Below are positions 13,173 to 22,921 of a stretch of DNA of 38,357 bases, piece by piece. Both the position numbers and the translations under genes were made by a program. Below the pieces are notes generated by a model that was given only the letters and a program-made list of their open reading frames with translations, made no database searches and was not told the origin of the DNA. This DNA comes from Gemmatimonadota bacterium (GTDB lineage: Bacteria; GCA-2686955), in the NCBI GenBank assembly GCA_002686955.1, contig NYZA01000227.1, positions 1 through 38,357 on the forward strand. Direction: 5' to 3'. Position 1 is the stretch's first letter. The number at the start of each line of letters is the position of its first letter.

Positions 13173-13769
13173 ATGGCGCTGCTACCGCGGCGCTATTTCG
13201 AACGCTACGTGGAAGAGGTCGCTCGCGGGCTCGTCGGCGTCGAGATCCATCTCGGTGGTGTCACTCTTCGAATAACGGAGACCGAAGCGTACGGCGGACC
13301 GGAGGATTCCGCTTCCCACGCGCGCTTCGGTCACACGGAGCGAAACGCTCCGATGTGGGGACCCGCGGGGTGCGTGTACGTCTATCTCTGCTACGGCATC
13401 CACAACATGCTCAATTTCGTGACCGGACCGCGCGGGGCGGCCGGGGCGGTGCTGATTCGCTCGTGTGAGCCGATCGAAGGGATCGAATTGATTCGAGAGC
13501 GTCGTGGCGAGCGGGCGGGGACGGAGTTGTTGGCGGGCCCCGGTCGTGTCGGAGAAGCACTTGGGCTCGATGTGGGCTGGAGTCACCACGACGCCTGCGC
13601 GGGTGGCGGCCTCGAAGTGCATGAGGGGGAACCGCCGAAGCGCCTCTTTGTCGGCTCACGAGTCGGCGTGAACTTCGCGGAGAAGCACGATAGGGACAAG
13701 CAAAGACGGTTCGCCGACGGAGCGACGACGTGGATCAGCCAGTCGAATGGGCTGATCGAGGGCCCGTGA
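13173..13769 (+). CDS. mpg: DNA-3-methyladenine glycosylase, AAG/MPG family
   Basis: 198 aa, normal length for bacterial members. It excises alkylated purines from DNA in base-excision repair. Landmarks are 'GVTLRITETEAYGGPEDSASHA' (about 29-50, holding the conserved E-T-E-A-Y with the catalytic acid), 'GCVYVYLCYGIHNMLNFVTG' (the Y-V-Y-x2-Y-G DNA-intercalating region) and 'AVLIRSCEPIEG', then 'LLAGPGRVGEALGL'. It starts immediately after the hflC stop with no gap, which couples its translation to hflC. Its last 35 bp overlap the 3' end of the convergent oxidoreductase/polyferredoxin gene. Confidence 0.93.
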   Translation: MALLPRRYFERYVEEVARGLVGVEIHLGGVTLRITETEAYGGPEDSASHARFGHTERNAPMWGPAGCVYVYLCYGIHNMLNFVTGPRGAAGAVLIRSCEPIEGIELIRERRGERAGTELLAGPGRVGEALGLDVGWSHHDACAGGGLEVHEGEPPKRLFVGSRVGVNFAEKHDRDKQRRFADGATTWISQSNGLIEGP

Positions 13770-15879
13770 GCTGCAGAACCTCCATGGGACAGACTTCGAT
13801 GCAGATCCCGCACTGGATGCAGGACGAGTCGGTGTTCCGCAGTGGCTCTCGACGCTGCGCGAAGCGTTGCACGTCGATTCCCATCTGACAGAAGCGGGTG
13901 CACTCGCCGCACCCGATGCAACGATCGTTGCTTTCGATCTTCAAACGGGCGATTCGGGCGGCGAGAATCTGCATCCAAGCGCGCAGAGGACAGAAAAAGC
14001 GACACCATACCCGGGAGCCCCAGTACGGGTAGAAGGCGACACCGACGATGCTGGCGAGCACGAAATCGATCATGAGACTGTACCAATACTGGGCGAACTC
14101 CTTGGTCGAGTAGAGCCCATCCGAGAGGATTCCCCATGCATCGGCCAGAATCAGGGCGGTCACCGGCAGGGCGAGAAGCAAGATCGCCCGCCCGAAACTC
14201 TCGGTTCGATAGGAGCTGCTTCCTCTCGGCGCCAGGTGTCTCCAGAAATCCCCGAGAGTCTCCGCCAGGCCGCCGCAGCCGCAGAGGTAGCTACAGAATC
14301 TCTCGCCCTGATATCGGACATAGAGCGGAATCACGACGAATGCGGAGGCGAACCCTACCGCGATCCAGGCCAGAGCTGTCGCTGTATCCCCGCCGGCCCA
14401 CGATGGAGCATCGATCAATGACCAGATCGAGAGCGGCCATGGCACCACCGCCGCATAGATCTTCCAGGGCCGCTCGATGATCATGGGGGCGAGGATCTCC
14501 GGTATTCCGAAGAGGAATACCCACTGAAAAGAGACTAGGGAGATGTAGCGACGTTTTTGGGTCCTGGATGGGTAGCGGCGGTAGGCGCGGATGCCGAAGA
14601 GCAGGAGCACGATGGAGTAGACCACGGTGCCCCAGAAGCTCGCATCGACGCTTCGAAACCCGAGATCCGCTTCGAGCAAACCCGGGACGAATCCCAGCGC
14701 GTCCTCCGGTCCGAAGGGGAAGAACATCTTCTTCGCCTTCAAGGTGTAGAAGCAGTAGGTGATGAGACCGAAGCACGCGATCCACAGGGCGCGTGCGAGA
14801 TCGATGTCACCCGACATGCGGATGCCGATGCGATTCAAGAAGGCTCGGGGGAGGGCCGTGCCGATGAAGACGAGCACGTCGTCGTTCGGCAGACGCAGCT
14901 CGCCTTCGTGGCCGTCGAGCACAACCTCGGCCTCCTCGATCAGCTTGGGGGAGGTGCCGAAGAGCGTTCGAACCCGTCCTTCGGCGGCGTATTCCTCGAT
15001 CGTCCGTCGGTTCTCCGGCTTGGCGCGCGTAAATCGATCGCCTCGGTACGAGACCGTGACCCGGGCTCCGGCATCGGCGCACGACACCGCCGCCTCGACG
15101 GCGGAGTCCCCGCCGCCGACCACGAGCAGCTCACGGCCTCTGTAGTCGGCTGGGTCTCTCAGTGAGAAGGAGACCTTTTCGAGATCTTCGCCAGCGATGC
15201 CGAGACGGCGGACTTTCCCGCGTCGCCCGATCGCCAGAACGACTCTGCGGGCGAGGTAGCTCTTCGATTCGCCTTCCCGAGATTCGAGAACCCCTTCGCC
15301 CGGTGTTGATCGGAGATCGAGTCCGCCCGACGCGACGAGGGTCCGGACCTCGAATGGACCGGAGGCCAGCCTTTGGATGTCGGTGACCTCTTCGGGCTGA
15401 TGGAGGTTGAGACTCCTCTCTTCGATCGCCTCTCGCCAACGCTTCACCAACTCCTCCTTGGCGGCGTCCTCGAACCAGAATCCACCTTTCGACTCGATGG
15501 CACGAGGCTCGCTGAATATCCGCTTGTTCTTGGGGAAGTTCTGGATCGTATCGAAGGGTCGGCACTGCTCGATCACCACATACCGGAGCCCGGTCTCCCT
15601 CAAGGCCAATGCGGCGCCGATTCCGGCCGGACCGGCGCCAACGACCACGACATCGAGAATCGCTTCGTCCCCGGCGGGCCTCAAATCCTCCGCCACCGAT
15701 CTGGCCACGTCGAATCCCTGGTTCAGCGCAACTTTGATGATCGGCGCATCCGCCAGGTCGCCCACTACATACAAGCCCTTCACATTCGACTCGTGGTTGG
15801 GCGAGATCCGCGGCAGCTCACGCACACCGAGCTTGGGCGAAAACTCGAACGAGATCTTCATGATTCTGCGTGTCGGCAT
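13735..15879 (-). CDS. flavin NAD(P) oxidoreductase fused to NosR/CcoG-like polyferredoxin membrane protein
   Basis: 714 aa from the ATG at 15879; a Met at 15861 and a GTG at 15921 are alternatives. Residues ~1-55 hold a thioredoxin-reductase C-terminal-like segment ('KGLYVVGDLADAPIIKVALNQG') placed ahead of the rest. Next is a full two-dinucleotide-binding-domain flavoprotein: the FAD site 'VVVVGAGPAGIGAALAL' and the NAD(P) site 'LLVVGGGDSAVEAAVSCADAG'. The C-terminal half has about seven hydrophobic helices. It carries a Cys cluster 'FCSYLCGCGGL', then 'WCRFFCPLRAW' and two [4Fe-4S] ferredoxin motifs, 'CIGCGECTRFCQMG' and 'CIQCGICIEVCPME'. This pattern fits electron flow from NAD(P)H through FAD to membrane iron-sulfur clusters. 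The acceptor is unknown. The regulator gene starts about 118 bp away in the opposite direction. Confidence 0.85.
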   Translation of the reverse strand: MPTRRIMKISFEFSPKLGVRELPRISPNHESNVKGLYVVGDLADAPIIKVALNQGFDVARSVAEDLRPAGDEAILDVVVVGAGPAGIGAALALRETGLRYVVIEQCRPFDTIQNFPKNKRIFSEPRAIESKGGFWFEDAAKEELVKRWREAIEERSLNLHQPEEVTDIQRLASGPFEVRTLVASGGLDLRSTPGEGVLESREGESKSYLARRVVLAIGRRGKVRRLGIAGEDLEKVSFSLRDPADYRGRELLVVGGGDSAVEAAVSCADAGARVTVSYRGDRFTRAKPENRRTIEEYAAEGRVRTLFGTSPKLIEEAEVVLDGHEGELRLPNDDVLVFIGTALPRAFLNRIGIRMSGDIDLARALWIACFGLITYCFYTLKAKKMFFPFGPEDALGFVPGLLEADLGFRSVDASFWGTVVYSIVLLLFGIRAYRRYPSRTQKRRYISLVSFQWVFLFGIPEILAPMIIERPWKIYAAVVPWPLSIWSLIDAPSWAGGDTATALAWIAVGFASAFVVIPLYVRYQGERFCSYLCGCGGLAETLGDFWRHLAPRGSSSYRTESFGRAILLLALPVTALILADAWGILSDGLYSTKEFAQYWYSLMIDFVLASIVGVAFYPYWGSRVWCRFFCPLRAWMQILAARIARLKIESNDRCIGCGECTRFCQMGIDVQRFAQRREPLRNTDSSCIQCGICIEVCPMEVLQLTGPRSAHSTG

Positions 15880-15997
15880 CTTCGATTCCAGGGCTATGCG
15901 CCGGGTCGATTCCCCCCGCACCGGTGCCCATCATAGGCCCTCGTGGGAGGGTTGCCTCAGTGGTTCAAGTCGAACGAATTCAGTCGATATCTCCGAC

Positions 15998-16714
15998 ATG
16001 GACGCCGCAGAGAGGATCAAGTACTTCCGCGAGCGGGCTGGATTGAGTCCGCCTCAGCTCGCTGCCCTTCTTGAGCTGGCGCCGGGCGAGATCGAGGCGC
16101 TGGAGCAGGGGAAGCGCGTTCTCGACCTCGATCTGATTCCCGCGCTTGTGCGCGCTCTCGGTTCGAGCTACGACGAGTTTTTCGGTACGCGGCGCTTGGC
16201 GGAGGACTTCCAGACCGAGATCCTGATCCAGAAGATCTCCGCTCTCGATCCGCGAGCACGGCGGGAGATAGAGCAGTTTGTCGATTTCAAGATCGAGAAG
16301 GGGCGGCGAGAGGAATCGCGCCGAAGCGCTGATCGCCGGGTCGTCTTGATCGTGGATGACGATCGCCACGTGCGGCAGACACTGGTGCAGGCCGTCAATG
16401 ATCTCACTCCCCACCGAGTCCTCGAAGCTCCCGATGCCGACTCCGCGATCCGGCTGCTCGAAGAGGAGGAGGTCGATCTACTGATCACCGATCTGGTCAT
16501 GCCGCGGGTCAGCGGGATCGATCTGATCGAAAAGGTCCGGTTGGTCGATGCCGACCTGCCGATCATCGCGCTGACCGGCTATACCGACATCTTCGACGCG
16601 AACGATACGCTCGATGTCGATGTGATCCGCGGAAAACCGCTTTCGCTTCAGGGACTCGTGGACGACCTGGAGCGCTTGTTGGAGGCTTCGGACGATGGAG
16701 TGAGTGGGGTGTAG
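15998..16714 (+). CDS. XRE-family HTH fused to a response-regulator receiver domain
   Basis: 238 aa from the ATG at 15998. The frame is open upstream but that part is antisense to the oxidoreductase gene. Residues 1-65 form an XRE/Cro helix-turn-helix ('IKYFRERAGLSPPQLAALLELAPGEIEALEQG' spans about 7-38). A charged helical linker (65-110) follows, then a receiver domain with the acidic pair Asp121/Asp122, phospho-acceptor Asp165 ('LLITDLVMPR'), Thr193 and Lys213. The DNA-binding domain is N-terminal and the receiver C-terminal, the reverse of the common OmpR/NarL order. No histidine kinase gene is present in the window. It is divergent from the oxidoreductase/polyferredoxin gene, its likeliest local target, and ends 3 bp from the convergent four-gene cluster. 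Confidence 0.87.
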   Translation: MDAAERIKYFRERAGLSPPQLAALLELAPGEIEALEQGKRVLDLDLIPALVRALGSSYDEFFGTRRLAEDFQTEILIQKISALDPRARREIEQFVDFKIEKGRREESRRSADRRVVLIVDDDRHVRQTLVQAVNDLTPHRVLEAPDADSAIRLLEEEEVDLLITDLVMPRVSGIDLIEKVRLVDADLPIIALTGYTDIFDANDTLDVDVIRGKPLSLQGLVDDLERLLEASDDGVSGV

Positions 16715-16717
16715 TCC

Positions 16718-18715
16718 TCAGGAGACACGCCGCAACGGACGCCCCTCACCGTCGAGCACAAGGAGCTGGCGGGGCTCCCCCACGCTGAGCAAGAGGTGGC
16801 GATCACGGATCGACACCATTCTCCATCGGCGAACGCCGCGAAGCTCGTCCGGCAATCCACCAGCGATCACCGATTCGACGGCGACCCGCGAAACGATCGG
16901 TGCTTTGGCCAGACGGGTGCAGAGCGAACAGAGCGAGCGGCTCGATACACATCGATTGCAGTAGTGCTCGTGACAGCTCGAACAGCGAAGTGCGTGCCCC
17001 TCGCAGACTGTGTCGCCACAGGGGGCACAGGAGTGGGAGTGGACCGGGCAGGCCTGTCGACCACAGGTTCTGCAAACCTCTGCATGGGCACGACAGAGAT
17101 CGCTGTCGCAGATCGAGCAGCGGGTGCCGTCGCGGTCGCAAACGGCGTTGCCGCAGCTCGCGCACTCGCCCGCGCATTTCTCGCAGACCGCCCTGCCACA
17201 AACTGTGCACTCCGCTGCGTGATCCGCACAACGCGACAAACCGCAGCTCACGCAGATCGACGCGTGTTCTCCGCATCCCGTACGGTGGCAAGCGGCGCAA
17301 CGCTGCGAGTGGGAGGGGCAGACGATCGCCCTACAGAAATCGCATTCTTCCAAGCAGCAGGGGCAATGGGCGCGACCGCACACCGAGCAATCGATCGACT
17401 CCGAAGTGCAGACGGGCTTCCGACACCGGGCGCACTCGAGTGCGCAGTTCCAACAGAGCGCTCCGCCGCAGGTCGCGCATTCGGTTCGGCACCGACCGCA
17501 GAGATCGGTGTCACATCGAGCGCATCGGGCGCCGCAGCTTTCGCAAGACGCGCGGCCGCAACGCCCGCATTCCCGCGCATCGGTTTCACAGACGATGCCG
17601 CGACAGTCCTGGCACGAGGATTCACACCGATCGCATACCGGAGTCGCGCACGTCGAGCATGGCTGCACTCCACAGCCCACACAAGAAAACCGTCCGCACA
17701 TGCCGCAGATACGCGCGCATGCGGCGCAGACCACATGCCCGCTGGAGCAGAGCGATAGCTCGAGGGCGGGTGTTCCACACGCCGAGCATCCGCCTGCTTC
17801 CAACGCGCCGGTGGACTGGTCGATTTCGATCGTGTGCTCTCCTAGAAGGCGATCTCGCGTGAGCGTCACCCTCGCCCGCACCCAAGGAACCTCGATCTCC
17901 GCGAAGCTGACAAGCCGGATCACGACGCGCTGGCGGTGGTTCTCGATCTCCTCGGCCAGCTTGTGCTCGTATTCGTCGTCAACCTGTTCAGTCGCATCTC
18001 GCCAGCGCGCGGGATCGCCCCGGGGCATCTCTTCCAAGCGATCCCTATAGTAGCTCTTCAGTCGCGTGATTGTATGTCGCAATCGATCGTGCAGGGCATC
18101 GGCCATTTCGCCTGCCCGATCGCGGGCTACCCGAGCCGCGAGCTTTGATGCTTCCTGGAAAGCGGCATCGAGCTCTTCGACCGATGCGTGGCGGCGAAGC
18201 AGCACTTTCGAGTCGTCATCCAACCACGTTCCCGGATCGATTCGTCGGGCAACATTGTTGTCATCTACCGCGATGCTCACCAAATCCTCTATCCGCTCAT
18301 CGGAGAGATAGACCAGGCGTATATGGAACACGTAGTGGCGCTTGAGTAGTCGCTCCAGCCGCGGCTCCGAGGTATCGGCGTCGGTCGCGTCGATCCGCCG
18401 AGCGATCCCGTCTCGCCTCACCCGATGGCGCACGGGAAGACGCAACCGAAGGCGGCGGCCTTCGCTGCTCATTTGTTTGAGCACACTCTCGAGTACGAAG
18501 CTGCCCGGTGTCACTCTTTCGACATCCGCGCTTTGCACTCCCGTACCGAAACCGAGCAGCATCTCTTCTCGCCCAAAGAATTCGACCAGCTCTCCCCCCA
18601 TCCTTACGTGAGAAACGCCGCCCTCTCGAGAGATCTCCGCGCCGTGTCGCCGAAAGAAAGCCTCGGTGAAGTCGCGCAGATCGTCGAACGGGCCGGCCCT
18701 ATCCCCTTCGCTCAT
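16718..18715 (-). CDS. Cys-rich protein with seventeen tandem 15-residue zinc-finger-like units
   Basis: 665 aa, no family recognised. Residues 1-300 are cysteine-free, mixed helix/strand and rich in charge. An amphipathic helical stretch at 180-265 ('FQEASKLAARVARDRAGEM') is probably coiled coil. Residues 310-600 are an array of the pattern C-x2-C-x4-C-x2-[C/H/D]. Units begin at Cys337, 353, 368, 383 and then every 15 residues to 578; fifteen of the seventeen are exactly 15 long. The fourth ligand is Cys in the first half and mostly His in the second. The last 65 residues return to an ordinary beta-rich sequence ('LPDELRGVRRWRMVSIRDRH'). The array could bind many metal ions, like stacked zinc ribbons or B-boxes. 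It is the last gene of the cluster and its start overlaps the helicase stop by 4 bp (ATGA). Confidence 0.85.
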   Translation of the reverse strand: MSEGDRAGPFDDLRDFTEAFFRRHGAEISREGGVSHVRMGGELVEFFGREEMLLGFGTGVQSADVERVTPGSFVLESVLKQMSSEGRRLRLRLPVRHRVRRDGIARRIDATDADTSEPRLERLLKRHYVFHIRLVYLSDERIEDLVSIAVDDNNVARRIDPGTWLDDDSKVLLRRHASVEELDAAFQEASKLAARVARDRAGEMADALHDRLRHTITRLKSYYRDRLEEMPRGDPARWRDATEQVDDEYEHKLAEEIENHRQRVVIRLVSFAEIEVPWVRARVTLTRDRLLGEHTIEIDQSTGALEAGGCSACGTPALELSLCSSGHVVCAACARICGMCGRFSCVGCGVQPCSTCATPVCDRCESSCQDCRGIVCETDARECGRCGRASCESCGARCARCDTDLCGRCRTECATCGGALCWNCALECARCRKPVCTSESIDCSVCGRAHCPCCLEECDFCRAIVCPSHSQRCAACHRTGCGEHASICVSCGLSRCADHAAECTVCGRAVCEKCAGECASCGNAVCDRDGTRCSICDSDLCRAHAEVCRTCGRQACPVHSHSCAPCGDTVCEGHALRCSSCHEHYCNRCVSSRSLCSLCTRLAKAPIVSRVAVESVIAGGLPDELRGVRRWRMVSIRDRHLLLSVGEPRQLLVLDGEGRPLRRVS
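16930..17707 (-). repeat. 45-bp-period coding repeat (17 Cys/His units)
   Basis: In-gene tandem repeat corresponding to residues 337-593 of the Cys-rich protein. The period is 45 bp (15 codons) over fifteen units, with a 48-bp first unit. Only the Cys/His frame (C-x2-C-x4-C-x2-C/H) is kept; the residues between differ from unit to unit and the DNA is not highly identical. It is therefore an old, selected protein repeat rather than a recent DNA expansion. Confidence 0.85.
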
Positions 18716-20637
18716 TGTTCCAACACCGAATCGAGGATTCTATCCGCTTCCCTGATATGGTGAATCCGATGGCGGGCCTGCTCAAATCGATCGGCCAATG
18801 AACGAAAGCCCTCCTCCATTCCGCTCTCATCGTGAACTGAAAGAAAGAGCTCTCTCACGATCTGCTCAAACGATTGTTGCTCTCCGAGCTCACCGAGAAT
18901 CAGATCGAGCTCGCCGATAACAAGCTCGAACATCCGGATCTTGTGGGCCAATATGTCGAGAATCCGCGCTTCGATCGTTCCCTCGAGCGAGAGATTAATG
19001 ATATTTACGGGTTGCTCTTGACCCAGCCGATGCAATCGTCCGATGCGCTGCTCGACTCTCATCGGATTCCAGGGTAGATCGAAATTGATCAGTTGGTGGC
19101 AGAACTGCAAATTAAGCCCTTCACCACCAGATTGCGTCGAGATCAGAATCCTCGCTTCGTCTCGAAACCTGCGCAGTGTTTCCGATCTCGCGTGCATCGA
19201 CGCAAGCCCCCCGTGAAATATTTCGACCGATTCCCCTCTCTCGATGAGAAGGCGCTGGAGCTGCGACATCGTTTCGAGAAAATCGGTGTAAATGATGAAC
19301 TTGCCGGGGAACTTGTCCAGTATCTCATAGACGGCTCTCACCTTTCTAGTCTCGGATGAGATGCCGGCGGCGATTCCGGCGAGCGATCTGAGACGCTCCG
19401 CACCCTTTCCCGCCAGATCGGGTCGCTCCGCCATCGTGCGCAGTGTCTTGCTCAAGGCGGCGGGGGAAGATGTTGCCTCGCGCTGAAGAGTCACGAGTGT
19501 TAGCAATCGTATTCTGTCGGCATGTCCCGTCCCTAACTCGTCGCGGATGTAGCTGGTGATGTCGTCATAGACCTCCTGTTCGTCCGGTTCGGCCTTCAGA
19601 TGGTAAATCGCGGCCCTACGGGGAGGCAGTTTGATCCCCACCGTGCTGCGCCGATTTCGGATCATCACGTCGGATAGAACCCGTTTGAGCTCATCGGTTC
19701 GCGATGGAAGTCGTGGATCCTGTTTCGATACATGCGTCTTGCGGAAGTTTCTGACCGTCCCCAGGATTCCGGGCTTCAGAATCGTCAGCAGTGAATAGAG
19801 CTCCGTCAAGTCGTTGTGTACCGGCGTTGCCGTGAGCAAAAGAACGTATTTCTTCTTGATCCTATTGACGAATCGGAACCGTCTCGTCGCACGGTTCTTG
19901 AGTTTGTGCGCTTCATCGACGATGAGCAGATCATAGCGATGCGCGAGAATCTGTCGTGAGTTTCTTTCGGACTGCGCCGTCGAGAGTGATGCCAATACGC
20001 GCTCGCCGCCCCAGCTTCCAGGCGCCCTGGCAATAGCGAACTCTTCACCGAACTTCTCTCGCATCTCCTCTTGCCACTGTGTGACCACCGACGCGGGTGT
20101 GAGAATCAACACATTTCGAACGAGTCCGCGTAGCAACAATTCCTTCATCACAAGGCCGGCTTCGACGGTCTTGCCCAATCCAACCTCGTCGGCCAAGAGC
20201 GCTTGGCCTCGCATCCTCTGCAATGCATCTTGGGCCGCTCGCACCTGATGCTCGAAGTGCAGAATCTCAACTTCGTCGAGCGCCATAAGCGTGTCGAATC
20301 CGGGCGTGATGTCGTGGCGAGCCGCCGCCAGGCGAAGGCGGAATAGGTCGATATCAGGCGACATGGTTCCGGAGAACAGATCGGTATACGATCGGTCGAT
20401 CGCGACGCTCGGTTCCGGAATCTCGATCCCCGCGTCGCGAAAGAAGCTGAGGTTTTGGCCACGGCCGCCGAAGGGCTCGCCACAGCGAAAACACTCGTTT
20501 CGGGTTTCCGGGTCCAACCAGGCGCATACGGGGCAACGCCGACCGAGAGTCGGTGGCGCAAGATCGGCTTTTCGTTCGGTCGATGAGACCGGGTCGCGAG
20601 GGATCTCAAGCCACTCGAAGCGTTCTCCGCTCCTCAT
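18712..20637 (-). CDS. SNF2/RapA-like DEAH helicase with N-terminal zinc ribbon
   Basis: 641 aa superfamily 2 ATPase. Residues 35-52 form a zinc ribbon (Cys35, Cys38, Cys49, Cys52: 'CPVCAW...ECFRCG'). After a linker come the Q-like region 'LHFEHQVRAAQDALQRM', motif I 'LADEVGLGKT' (148-157), motif Ia 'ILTPASVVTQW', motif II D-E-A-H (241-244) and motif III 'LLTATP'. The C-terminal lobe has 'KFIIYTDFLETM', 'ILISTQSGGEGLNLQFCHQLINFDLPWNP' (motif V region) and 'QRIGRLHRLGQ' (motif VI). This is closest to RapA/HepA-type translocases, which move on double-stranded DNA and remodel protein-nucleic-acid complexes. RapA-specific N-terminal Tudor-like domains are not obvious. It overlaps both neighbours by 4 bp. 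A few lines sampled by eye had lower GC (47-58%) than the AAA gene. Confidence 0.9.
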   Translation of the reverse strand: MRSGERFEWLEIPRDPVSSTERKADLAPPTLGRRCPVCAWLDPETRNECFRCGEPFGGRGQNLSFFRDAGIEIPEPSVAIDRSYTDLFSGTMSPDIDLFRLRLAAARHDITPGFDTLMALDEVEILHFEHQVRAAQDALQRMRGQALLADEVGLGKTVEAGLVMKELLLRGLVRNVLILTPASVVTQWQEEMREKFGEEFAIARAPGSWGGERVLASLSTAQSERNSRQILAHRYDLLIVDEAHKLKNRATRRFRFVNRIKKKYVLLLTATPVHNDLTELYSLLTILKPGILGTVRNFRKTHVSKQDPRLPSRTDELKRVLSDVMIRNRRSTVGIKLPPRRAAIYHLKAEPDEQEVYDDITSYIRDELGTGHADRIRLLTLVTLQREATSSPAALSKTLRTMAERPDLAGKGAERLRSLAGIAAGISSETRKVRAVYEILDKFPGKFIIYTDFLETMSQLQRLLIERGESVEIFHGGLASMHARSETLRRFRDEARILISTQSGGEGLNLQFCHQLINFDLPWNPMRVEQRIGRLHRLGQEQPVNIINLSLEGTIEARILDILAHKIRMFELVIGELDLILGELGEQQSFEQIVRELFLSVHDESGMEEGFRSLADRFEQARHRIHHIREADRILDSVLEQ

Positions 20638-22148
20638 GTTTCGGCCGACGCACGCCGGGCTCGGCCCCGCGCCCAGTCGCGAAGGGCGGAAACATCGTGG
20701 TCCATCGTGCGGGACAGAGGCGCAGTCGCATCAAGATTGTGCAAAACATCGTCATCGGCGAGAGGTCGCTTCGCCTGAAAGGCGTCGAAAAGTCCGCCCA
20801 CCACCGACTCCTCGATCTCCGCGCCGCTGAATCCCTCGCTCGCGTTCGCGAGGCGCCTGAGATCGAAGCTCTCGGGATTGCGATCGCGAGCACGCAGATG
20901 GATCCGGAAGATCGCCTCCCTCTCGAGAACCGTCGGCAGATCGACGAAGAAGATCTCGTCGAATCTGCCCTTTCTGAGAAGCTCGGGAGGGAGCTGCCGC
21001 ACATCGTTGGCAGTCGCGACGACAAAGACGGCGCGGCGCTTCTCTTGCAGCCAAGTCATGAAGGTGCCGAACACTCTCGCGGCGGTGCCGGCGTCTGAAT
21101 AGTTCGATGATCCGGTCCCGGCGAAACCTTTTTCGACCTCGTCGATCCACAGAATGACCGGAGCGATCGACTCCGCCGTTCTGATCGCGAGTCGCATATT
21201 CTCTTCGCTTGAGCCCACCGTGCCGGAGAAAACGCGTCCGACATCGAGACGCAGGATCGGCTGCCCCCACTGCGCCGCAATCCCCTTGGCCGTCAACGAT
21301 TTCCCACAGCCTTGCACGCCAACGAGCAACACCCCTCTCGGGGCGGGCAGGCCGAATTCACGGGCGCGATCGGAGAGGGCATCCCCTCGCTTGCGGAGCC
21401 ATTCTTTGAGCTGGCCGAGGCCGCCGACCTGATCGAGGGTCGCTTCCGGATCGTAGTACTCGAGAATCCCCGACTTGCGAATGATCTGCTTCTTCTCTTC
21501 GAGCACCGAATCGACCGCCGAACCGTCCACCGAGCGAGCGCGCACGACTGCCTTCGCCATCGCGTTCTCGAACTCGCCGAGTGTGAGCCCCTGTGCCGCG
21601 CGAATCACGGCCTCGCGCGTCAGACGAGGAAGATCGATCCGCACGTCGCCCCGCTCGTGCAACCAACCCAGTAGATCGTCGAGCGCGCGCCCCAAGACCT
21701 CTCTGTCGGGCAGCTCGTGATCCACGACTTCGATCTCCTTGGCCAGCTCGGTCGGCAGCTTCAGCACCGGAGAGACCAGAAGAATCGAGACCGGGCGGGT
21801 GCGCAGCGCCGCCACCAGGTCGCGAAGTTTGCGGACGATTCGGGGGTCGTTCAGGTAGGGATGAAAGTCGAGAAGGACGACCATCCGCTCCTGGTCTTCG
21901 TTCGCGAGCTCATCGAGTACAATCCGAGGATCGGTCGTGTCGGGCCCGCGGCGCGCCGCCGGAACCGGAGCCTTGCGCCCGTCACGGCGGAGGCCTTCGG
22001 TCGATGTCCAGATCCACATCTCTTTCGAGACGGTCTTCGCCACTTGTCGCACCGATTCGAGGACGCGTTGCTCTTCGAATGAGACCACGTACATCAAGGG
22101 GTATCGCGCGCGGATGGAGTCGACCAGGTGTGAGATCAGGTTGTTCAT
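20634..22148 (-). CDS. AAA+ ATPase, Ycf46-like
   Basis: 504 aa from the ATG at 22148, which overlaps the stop of the preceding gene as ATGA; the frame is open further upstream but unneeded. Residues 1-200 resemble the N-terminal half of Ycf46-type proteins: 'LISHLVDSIRARYPLMYVVSFEE' (4-26), then a degenerate ATPase-like fold with 'MVVLLDFHPYLND'. Residues 240-450 are a classical AAA module with Walker A 'GVQGCGKS' (277-284), Walker B 'ILWIDEVEK' (332-340), sensor 1 Asn381 in 'VATAND', Arg fingers in 'LLRKGRFDE' (391-397) and sensor 2 'SGAEIEE'. Family knowledge: Ycf46 is found in cyanobacteria and plastids and its job is poorly defined. It probably forms a ring and, from its place in the operon, works with the helicase. 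Confidence 0.9.
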   Translation of the reverse strand: MNNLISHLVDSIRARYPLMYVVSFEEQRVLESVRQVAKTVSKEMWIWTSTEGLRRDGRKAPVPAARRGPDTTDPRIVLDELANEDQERMVVLLDFHPYLNDPRIVRKLRDLVAALRTRPVSILLVSPVLKLPTELAKEIEVVDHELPDREVLGRALDDLLGWLHERGDVRIDLPRLTREAVIRAAQGLTLGEFENAMAKAVVRARSVDGSAVDSVLEEKKQIIRKSGILEYYDPEATLDQVGGLGQLKEWLRKRGDALSDRAREFGLPAPRGVLLVGVQGCGKSLTAKGIAAQWGQPILRLDVGRVFSGTVGSSEENMRLAIRTAESIAPVILWIDEVEKGFAGTGSSNYSDAGTAARVFGTFMTWLQEKRRAVFVVATANDVRQLPPELLRKGRFDEIFFVDLPTVLEREAIFRIHLRARDRNPESFDLRRLANASEGFSGAEIEESVVGGLFDAFQAKRPLADDDVLHNLDATAPLSRTMDHDVSALRDWARGRARRASAET

Positions 22149-22921
22149 CGTTTCTTCGCAAGTCTCGATATCGGTCGCCACTCGTCGCTCCCCCTGAAGA
22201 GTTTGGAAAGATAGGCGTGATACCGATCGGCATCTCTGGGAACGAGCCTGCGGGGGGCCGGGTAGCCCAGGGGATTCGGCTCGTAGCGCCATATGCCGGC
22301 GACCTCCAGTCGCTCCGGCAGGTGGTCGATCGCGCTCTCCATGCGAGCCCACGAGAGGGCGGGGCAGCCTGAGCGCCGGCGCAAGGGGCTCAGGAAGGAA
22401 CGCATTCGATGTCGGTCGAGCATCCAGTGGCTCTTCGCCACCGGGCGGGCAAAGTCGAACCAATGCGGTCGCTCTGGGTCGAGCGCCGTGGGACCGAGAC
22501 GCAACCGAATGTGGCGATCCCGGCACCCGAGATGCGAAGGATACTCGCCATAGTCAGCGCATGCCTCGACATCGCGGCCCTCCGAGAGCACGTGATCGAC
22601 ATGGCAGTCAACGAACGCATCGATGTCGCCCCGATCGGCGGGCCATCCACTCAGATGCGCCTGCACGCCCGGCCATTCTCCGGCGAGGCGCCAGAGAGTA
22701 CGGAACTCCGCCAGGTCCTCGGCCCGGTAGGTGTTGCGGTAGATGCAGCCGCCCCGTTCGTCCAGCATTCGGACCGCGCCGGGGTGCTCGGCGTGAAAGG
22801 CGATCACCTCATCGATCCCCCGCACGTCGATCCGCCTGAAATCGAGAACGACGTACCAACCCCGATCCACGGGGGACCAATTCGATTCGGCTTCGATCGG
22901 GGTCTCGTCGGGCGTGTCCAT
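22145..22921 (-). CDS. uncharacterised protein, first gene of the AAA/helicase cluster
   Basis: 258 aa, no family recognised. It looks soluble and cytoplasmic: acidic N-terminal tail (1-18), then an alpha/beta sequence beginning 'GWYVVLDFRRIDVRGIDEVIAFHAEHPG' (about 21-48). It is unusually rich in His, Trp, Arg and Asp. A middle segment has several Cys/His residues: 'FVDCHVDHVL', 'VEACADYGEY', 'SHLGCRDRHIRLRLG'. These could bind metal. The C-terminal part is basic ('KLFRGSDEWRPISRLAKKR'). Its stop overlaps the start of the AAA gene by 4 bp (ATGA), the same junction used at the other two boundaries of the cluster, so all four genes are expected on one transcript. An adaptor, nuclease or substrate-recognition role is possible, but no catalytic motif is visible. 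Confidence 0.78.
   Translation of the reverse strand: MDTPDETPIEAESNWSPVDRGWYVVLDFRRIDVRGIDEVIAFHAEHPGAVRMLDERGGCIYRNTYRAEDLAEFRTLWRLAGEWPGVQAHLSGWPADRGDIDAFVDCHVDHVLSEGRDVEACADYGEYPSHLGCRDRHIRLRLGPTALDPERPHWFDFARPVAKSHWMLDRHRMRSFLSPLRRRSGCPALSWARMESAIDHLPERLEVAGIWRYEPNPLGYPAPRRLVPRDADRYHAYLSKLFRGSDEWRPISRLAKKR

What the first reader, a model, noticed from the sequence alone, without database searches (positions are those of the whole stretch)
16718..22921. Four-gene translationally fused cluster: unknown protein, Ycf46-like AAA+, zinc-ribbon SNF2/RapA helicase and a giant Cys/His-array protein
All three junctions are identical 4-bp ATGA overlaps, which argues for strict coexpression and equimolar assembly. 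An AAA+ ring ATPase and a SNF2-type translocase, plus two proteins with no recognisable family and strong metal-binding potential, make a coherent machine. Plausible roles are remodelling stalled RNA polymerase or DNA-protein complexes, or phage defence. The helicase carries a zinc ribbon and the last gene carries about 17 possible metal sites, so the cluster may share zinc-dependent nucleic-acid or protein recognition. I do not recognise it as a named defence or repair system. Overlaps and motifs are seen directly; the joint function is inference.
Basis: partly seen in the sequence, partly recalled or inferred. Interest (0 to 1): 0.82.

Follow-up and report, generated by a model that had tools for sequence, protein, structure and literature searches.

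The report
Split RapA with AAA+ motor partner
Four bacterial proteins that are always inherited together, even when their genes are scattered, appear to form a previously unnamed machine in which a DNA-walking motor like RapA (the factor that frees stuck RNA polymerase) is split in two, carries a long zinc-studded rod, and is paired with its own ring-shaped AAA+ motor.

Summary
The four overlapping genes are real (A 258 aa, B Ycf46-like AAA+, C zinc-ribbon SNF2, D 665 aa with 67 Cys).

They are a co-inherited module. In 386 genomes, A is found clearly in 8. All 8 also carry the close C subtype (9 genomes in all), B (62 in all) and an array-bearing D, although in six of them the genes are scattered. 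B from A-bearing genomes is one clade (SH-aLRT 97), and so is C (100; one congeneric exception). Named relatives are Planctomycetota and Chloroflexota, with A-B-C-D order in two Planctomycetota, one Chloroflexota and the only other genome held of the window's phylum.

D is not orphan. Its N-terminal ~283 residues are homologous to YqhG (PF11079) and, through it, to the RapA C-terminal domain (profile-profile E 2.6e-11; the only Foldseek hits at E<1e-3 are four RapA structures). So C+D is a RapA split into two subunits in RapA order, as YqhH/YqhG of Bacilli appears to be. D then continues as a regular 15-residue zinc-finger rod. A has a ferredoxin-like fold plus four conserved Cys.

Best explanation: a chromosomal two-motor remodeller of stalled RNA polymerase or DNA-protein complexes. 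The target is inferred. Defence is not supported. Novelty: new variant of the RapA kind.

The parts
22145..22921 (-). Gene A, 258 aa, no known family; predicted ferredoxin-like (beta-alpha-beta-beta-alpha-beta) N-domain plus conserved Cys4 region
22637..22864 (-). A: conserved N-terminal domain (about residues 20-95), the part shared with Chloroflexota homologues
   Evidence: alignment; AF2 pLDDT above 90 over most of it
22364..22606 (-). A: region of four conserved Cys (C106, C121, C133, C186), kept in the 11 non-Chloroflexota homologues; candidate zinc site
   Evidence: alignment
20634..22148 (-). Gene B, 504 aa, Ycf46-like AAA+ ATPase of a dedicated clade
21297..21320 (-). B Walker A GVQGCGKS (residues 277-284)
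21138..21155 (-). B Walker B ILWIDE (residues 332-337)
18712..20637 (-). Gene C, 641 aa, zinc ribbon + SNF2 (RapA/YqhH group) translocase without a RapA C-terminal domain
20482..20535 (-). C N-terminal zinc ribbon CPVC-x10-CFRC (residues 35-52); found in 15 of 17 C of the clade, 2 of 90 outside
18871..20265 (-). C SNF2 two-lobe motor core (about residues 125-589)
16718..18715 (-). Gene D, 665 aa: RapA-C-terminal/YqhG-type domain followed by zinc-finger rod
17867..18715 (-). D N-terminal domain (residues 1-283) aligning to E. coli RapA 703-968 and to YqhG
   Evidence: hhalign E 2.6e-11 to RapA_C; E about 1e-33 to YqhG; Foldseek RapA E 1.8e-5
16934..17788 (-). D zinc-finger array (residues 310-594), 15-residue period, predicted as continuous short beta-hairpin rod (pLDDT about 73-95, lower at its C-terminal end)
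18712..18715 (-). C/D 4-bp ATGA overlap, also in Planctomycetota and other relatives
20634..20637 (-). B/C 4-bp ATGA overlap
22145..22148 (-). A/B 4-bp ATGA overlap, also in G001, L020 and G391

Best explanation
A-B-C-D encode one chromosomal, non-mobile remodelling machine. C (SNF2 translocase with a zinc ribbon) and D (RapA-type C-terminal domain plus zinc-finger rod) together rebuild a RapA-like enzyme from two polypeptides: C tracks along duplex DNA, and the D N-domain packs on it as the RapA C-terminal domain does in a single chain. The D rod and the C ribbon, together with the probable zinc-binding protein A, recognise the target. B, a dedicated Ycf46-type AAA+ ATPase presumably acting as a ring, is recruited through A and uses a second ATPase cycle to pull apart or release the complex that the translocase has engaged. 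The most likely target is stalled or post-termination RNA polymerase, as for RapA. Shown: the four-gene association, the split-RapA homology, intact motor motifs, and the regular Cys array. Inferred: zinc loading, physical complex, who contacts whom, and the target.
For: Co-inheritance: A is found clearly in 8 of 386 genomes and all 8 hold the close C (9 of 386), B (62 of 386) and array-bearing D (hypergeometric A-in-C 8e-16, A-in-B 3e-7, A-in-D 1.5e-14; at family level A-in-C 2.5e-12). All eight named genomes reached through close C loci hold A, B and D, while seven genomes with the broader SNF2 lack A. B of A-bearing genomes is one clade apart from generic Ycf46-like proteins (SH-aLRT 97, 0 of 500 shuffles); C likewise (100). 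Pairwise distances of A, B, C and D N-domain correlate at r 0.81-0.93. Order A-B-C-D is kept in G001, L019, L020 and, with frameshifts, L017. Split RapA: D N-domain profile vs RapA_C, probability 97.5, E 2.6e-11, end to end, column-shuffled controls E 0.4 or worse; array-D profile vs YqhG E about 1e-33; the only Foldseek hits at E<1e-3 are four E. coli RapA entries; C's PDB matches include RapA E 7e-34. The order C then D equals the order of the domains in RapA. RapA removes stalled or post-termination RNA polymerase (PMC8666675, PMC9303389). B. thuringiensis YqhH, by name the SNF2 partner of the shorter system, is an ATPase/helicase needed for UV survival (PMC10054049).
Against: No interaction or biochemical data. 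RapA contacts RNA polymerase with its N-terminal domain (PMC8666675), which C lacks (it has a zinc ribbon instead), so the target may have changed. YqhG of Bacilli alone against RapA_C is weak (E 0.006), about the level of the reversed-profile control (0.004), so the Bacilli link rests on the intermediate sequences. Correlated distances could reflect vertical descent alone; no neutral-gene control was run. Genes are dispersed in many genomes, so constitutive equimolar expression is not implied. G365 has C and D but A and B were not found. A's role is unknown.
Confidence: 0.5

Rival explanations
1. Same four-protein machine, but it clears obstacles other than RNA polymerase (nucleoprotein roadblocks, recombination or replication intermediates); the RapA domain is only an architectural inheritance.
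For: C lacks the RapA N-terminal RNA-polymerase-binding domain and carries a clade-specific zinc ribbon instead; B. thuringiensis yqhH knockout is UV-sensitive (PMC10054049); SNF2 core matches Sulfolobus SNF2/Rad54 best among solved structures (E 7e-38; organism from general knowledge).
Against: The RapA-type C-terminal domain is otherwise known from an RNA polymerase factor; no positive evidence for another target.
Confidence: 0.25
2. Anti-phage defence system related to DISARM or BREX helicases.
For: C hits DrmD and BrxHI models (E 1e-74 and 1e-78); B hits IetA at 4e-17.
Against: Scores are far below equivalog cut-offs (DrmD 250 of 950 bits, IetA-type 55 of 510), explained by superfamily membership; no defence system among window neighbours; no phage match at E 1e-40 and only generic 37-40% SNF2 matches among the ten plasmid records listed; congruent trees and dispersed chromosomal copies.
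Confidence: 0.07
3. Two separate pairs: C-D is a split RapA, and A-B is an independent Ycf46-type system that merely shares an operon in some lineages.
For: A/B and C/D are the recurrently overlapping pairs; G391 has A-B and C-D on different contigs; G365 has only C-D; in other genomes C-D (short D) occurs without A.
Against: A never clearly found without close C and D in 386 genomes; dedicated B clade mirrors the C clade.
Confidence: 0.13
4. Zinc or redox homeostasis cluster in which D is a metal store or sensor.
For: 67 Cys in D, Cys4 in A, ribbon in C.
Against: The array is a regular structural repeat predicted with good confidence, coupled to motors; no metal transport neighbours seen.
Confidence: 0.04

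Closest known systems
RapA/HepA (E. coli RNA polymerase recycling SNF2 ATPase)
   Same: SNF2 motor of the same group followed by a homologous C-terminal domain
   Different: Here the C-terminal domain is a separate gene with a zinc rod; no RapA-type N-terminal domain, a zinc ribbon instead; two extra partners A and B
YqhH-YqhG of Bacilli (and short C-D pairs in many phyla)
   Same: SNF2 gene followed at once by a YqhG-type gene, often with 4-bp overlap
   Different: Bacilli YqhG has no Cys array, the SNF2 lacks the ribbon; A is absent from all seven short-pair genomes tested
Ycf46-family AAA+ ATPases (cyanobacteria, plastids)
   Same: B has the same kind of N-domain plus AAA architecture; full-length relatives at 40-55% identity in many genomes
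   Different: B of this module forms its own clade tied to A, C and D; generic copies sit beside other genes such as a 150-aa protein and a TPR protein
DISARM DrmD / BREX BrxH helicases
   Same: SNF2 core homology
   Different: Far below equivalog cut-offs; none of the partner genes or genomic setting

Membership tests
RapA (RNA polymerase recycling factor) | SNF2 motor core of RapA group | tested here: met
   Pfam SNF2-rel_dom 1.9e-33; RapA model 8e-54 but below equivalog cut-off (183 of 576 bits)
RapA (RNA polymerase recycling factor) | RapA C-terminal domain | tested here: met
   Present as the D N-domain, in a separate gene: hhalign E 2.6e-11, Foldseek E 1.8e-5; not detected by Pfam PF12137
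RapA (RNA polymerase recycling factor) | Both on one chain with RapA-type N-terminal domain | tested here: not met
   Two genes; C N-terminus is a zinc ribbon
RapA (RNA polymerase recycling factor) | Binds and recycles RNA polymerase | not testable with these tools
   needs biochemistry
YqhG (PF11079) | YqhG domain in the gene directly after an SNF2 gene | tested here: met
   hhalign of array-D N-domain to Pfam-positive Bacilli YqhG E about 1e-33; adjacency in most loci; the window protein itself does not reach the Pfam cut-off
Ycf46 AAA+ family | Ycf46-type N-domain plus classical AAA domain over full length | tested here: inconclusive
   AAA domain E 8.6e-27 and full-length matches at 40-55% to AAA proteins in 62 genomes; the name Ycf46 rests on recalled resemblance, no Ycf46 reference sequence was compared
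DISARM (DrmD) | DrmD equivalog score | tested here: not met
   250 bits vs cut-off 950 and 245 vs 610
Anti-phage defence island system | Located among known defence genes or mobile elements | tested here: not met
   (window neighbours only; dispersed loci not scanned for defence genes)

The most novel reading that the evidence does not exclude
A previously undescribed bacterial machine that couples two different ATP motors, a DNA translocase (RapA split into two subunits) and a Cdc48-like AAA+ ring, through zinc-rod and adaptor proteins, to extract stalled RNA polymerase or other complexes from DNA: a bacterial counterpart in logic to Cdc48 acting on chromatin-bound RNA polymerase II.
Probability: 0.4. 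Interest if true: 0.8.

Novelty: new variant of a known kind. Interest (0 to 1): 0.62.

Why it matters
It would give a first testable role to YqhG, a Pfam family 'of unknown function' that follows the SNF2 gene in most of the loci seen here, by identifying it as the detached C-terminal domain of RapA. It also defines a four-protein module in several phyla that unites an SNF2 translocase with an AAA+ ATPase, a pairing for which no bacterial precedent was found in the papers searched, and a zinc-finger rod of about 17 sites as a possible new type of recognition element.

Tried and rejected
Pfam, NCBIfam, PADLOC and PDB-sequence searches for A gave nothing usable. Foldseek of A gave only weak ferredoxin/ACT-like matches (E 0.02 or worse, TM about 0.2). 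An iterated A profile drifted into B through a frameshifted fused ORF in L017 and was discarded; a clean five-member alignment was used instead. The single-sequence RapA comparison was inconclusive (probability 2.4, E 0.007) and became significant only with a RapA_C profile. Apparent C+D fusion ORFs in L019 and L177 are long alternative frames; L182 is an SNF2 with a truncated D remnant. Conserved neighbours of the dispersed genes were sought; only ordinary genes recurred. Mutual exclusion of single-chain RapA and this module was looked at: no overlap, but counts too small to mean anything. Literature searches found no description of the module.

Full report
Observation. The four minus-strand ORFs and their three 4-bp ATGA overlaps are present as described. 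I call them A (22145-22921), B (20634-22148), C (18712-20637) and D (16718-18715). B is a classical AAA ATPase with intact Walker motifs. C is an SNF2 ATPase with all motor motifs and an N-terminal CxxC-x10-CxxC ribbon. D carries 67 Cys, with a strict 15-residue period C-x2-C-x4-C-x2-[CHD] in residues 443-592. A matches nothing in Pfam or in PDB sequences.

Is it a module? The window's phylum has one other genome held (G001, same family), and it has A-B-C-D in order. Across 386 genomes, nearly all from outside the phylum, A was found in 8 (a ninth, G113, at E 8e-4 is taken as chance). The close C subtype (bits above 590) was in 9, B in 62, and array-bearing D in 11 by my reading. All 8 A genomes are contained in each of the other sets. 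The chance of A falling inside C is 8e-16 by genome and 2.5e-12 by family. In six of the 8 genomes (G054, G099, G197, G237, G242, G328) the genes lie on different contigs or far apart, with C-D adjacent only in G099 and G237, so the association is not an artefact of linkage.

Named relatives. Close C loci came from Caldilineaceae/Anaerolineae (L013-L017) and Planctomycetota (L018-L020). Searching their whole genomes found A and D in all eight, with B seen either beside C or elsewhere. Gene order varies: A-B-C-D in L019, L020 and L017 (the last with frameshifts in A and D), A-B-C in L016, A-B and C-D on separate contigs in G391, and dispersed in others. Genomes with the more distant SNF2 (G394-G400) have C and a D-type gene but no A. 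G365 has C and D without A and B, although its congener G099 has all four; loss or an assembly gap cannot be told apart.

Trees. B proteins from A-bearing genomes form one clade (SH-aLRT 97) against 17 other Ycf46-like proteins, with one change of label and none of 500 shuffles as low. C from A-bearing genomes, plus G365, form a clade at 100. The same sub-groups appear in both trees, and distance matrices of A, B, C and the D N-domain correlate at r 0.81-0.93. This fits co-inheritance but was not compared with neutral genes. C of G394 and G062, both with long-array D genes in the genome, are the nearest outgroup, which suggests that the zinc rod came before A and the dedicated B. The C zinc ribbon is found in 15 of 17 C of the clade and 2 of 90 outside.

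What D is. The gene directly after the SNF2 gene belongs to one family in 78 of 87 loci, by a profile started from zinc-bearing D proteins. Bacilli members are the Pfam family YqhG. Profile comparison of array-D N-domains with those YqhG proteins gives E about 1e-33 over the full length. AlphaFold2 models D with mean pLDDT 86.5: an alpha/beta domain, a long helical hairpin and strands up to about residue 300, then a regular rod of short hairpins. Foldseek against the PDB gives four hits below 1e-3, all E. coli RapA. Profile comparison with a RapA_C alignment (E. coli RapA plus eight PF12137 proteins) gives probability 97.5 and E 2.6e-11 over 257 columns, D 1-283 against RapA 703-968, collinear to the C terminus. 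Column-shuffled controls give 0.4-0.9 and the reversed profile 0.004. The narrower array-D profile gives 2.7e-6. I therefore read C+D as RapA split between motor and C-terminal domain, in the same order, with YqhH-YqhG as the simpler form. Bacilli YqhG on its own matches RapA_C only weakly (E 0.006), so that link runs through the array-bearing and other intermediate sequences.

What A is. A has a confidently modelled N-terminal beta-alpha-beta-beta-alpha-beta domain (mean pLDDT of the whole model 82) with only weak ferredoxin/ACT-like structural matches. Four Cys (C106, C121, C133, C186) are kept in all eleven non-Chloroflexota homologues, so a zinc site is likely. Chloroflexota A keeps only the N-domain, behind a different N-terminal extension.

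Function. RapA releases RNA polymerase from stalled or post-termination complexes (PMC8666675, PMC9303389). YqhH of B. thuringiensis is an ATPase/helicase needed for UV survival (PMC10054049); for B. subtilis one paper lists YqhH (HepA) among RNA-polymerase-interacting translocases (PMC7385302), while a later review names YwqA as the RapA homologue (PMC10804225). The most economical mechanism is a RapA-like translocase made of C and D, targeted by zinc modules, working with a dedicated AAA+ ATPase recruited by A. The target is inferred. C lacks the RapA N-terminal domain that contacts RNA polymerase, so an altered target is a serious rival.

Not defence. PADLOC and NCBIfam hits of C and B are superfamily matches far under cut-off. 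Pfam and PADLOC scans of window neighbours show a methylpurine DNA glycosylase, SPFH proteins, oxidoreductases, a sulfatase and a sigma-70-family factor, no defence system. No phage record matches C at E 1e-40, and the ten plasmid records listed match C at only 37-40%.

Verdict. A real, previously unnamed four-protein module, best filed as a new variant of the RapA kind. Confidence is high (about 0.9) that the four belong together, good (about 0.85) that C+D is a split RapA, and moderate (about 0.5) for the full mechanism as stated.

Noticed in passing
16001-16714 (+): Convergent neighbour of D: protein with an N-terminal XRE-type HTH and a C-terminal response-regulator receiver domain, the reverse of the usual order.
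   Followed up: partly
13735-15921 (-): 728-aa protein with a pyridine-nucleotide-disulphide/FAD oxidoreductase part, a membrane-like middle and a C-terminal 4Fe-4S ferredoxin part.
   Followed up: partly
L150, L151, L159, L160, L167 (other genomes): Generic Ycf46-like AAA genes outside this module are followed by a conserved 150-180 aa protein and a TPR-like protein: a different recurring neighbourhood for this AAA family.
   Followed up: partly
L039, L043, L044 and other Bacilli loci: YqhG (PF11079, function unknown) appears, through intermediates, to be the RapA C-terminal domain encoded as a separate gene after the SNF2 gene yqhH.
   Followed up: yes
L018:6197-7498 / G391: Planctomycetota D homologue that stops just where the zinc array should begin; array lost or frameshifted.
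   Followed up: no
L278:3521-7176 (G387): One Chloroflexota genome holds a second SNF2 plus D-type pair (18 Cys) besides the module's own dispersed D.
   Followed up: no
L277:3-2423 (G394) and L264 (G058): Long-array D proteins in genomes without a clear A; G394 also has two B-like genes.
   Followed up: partly
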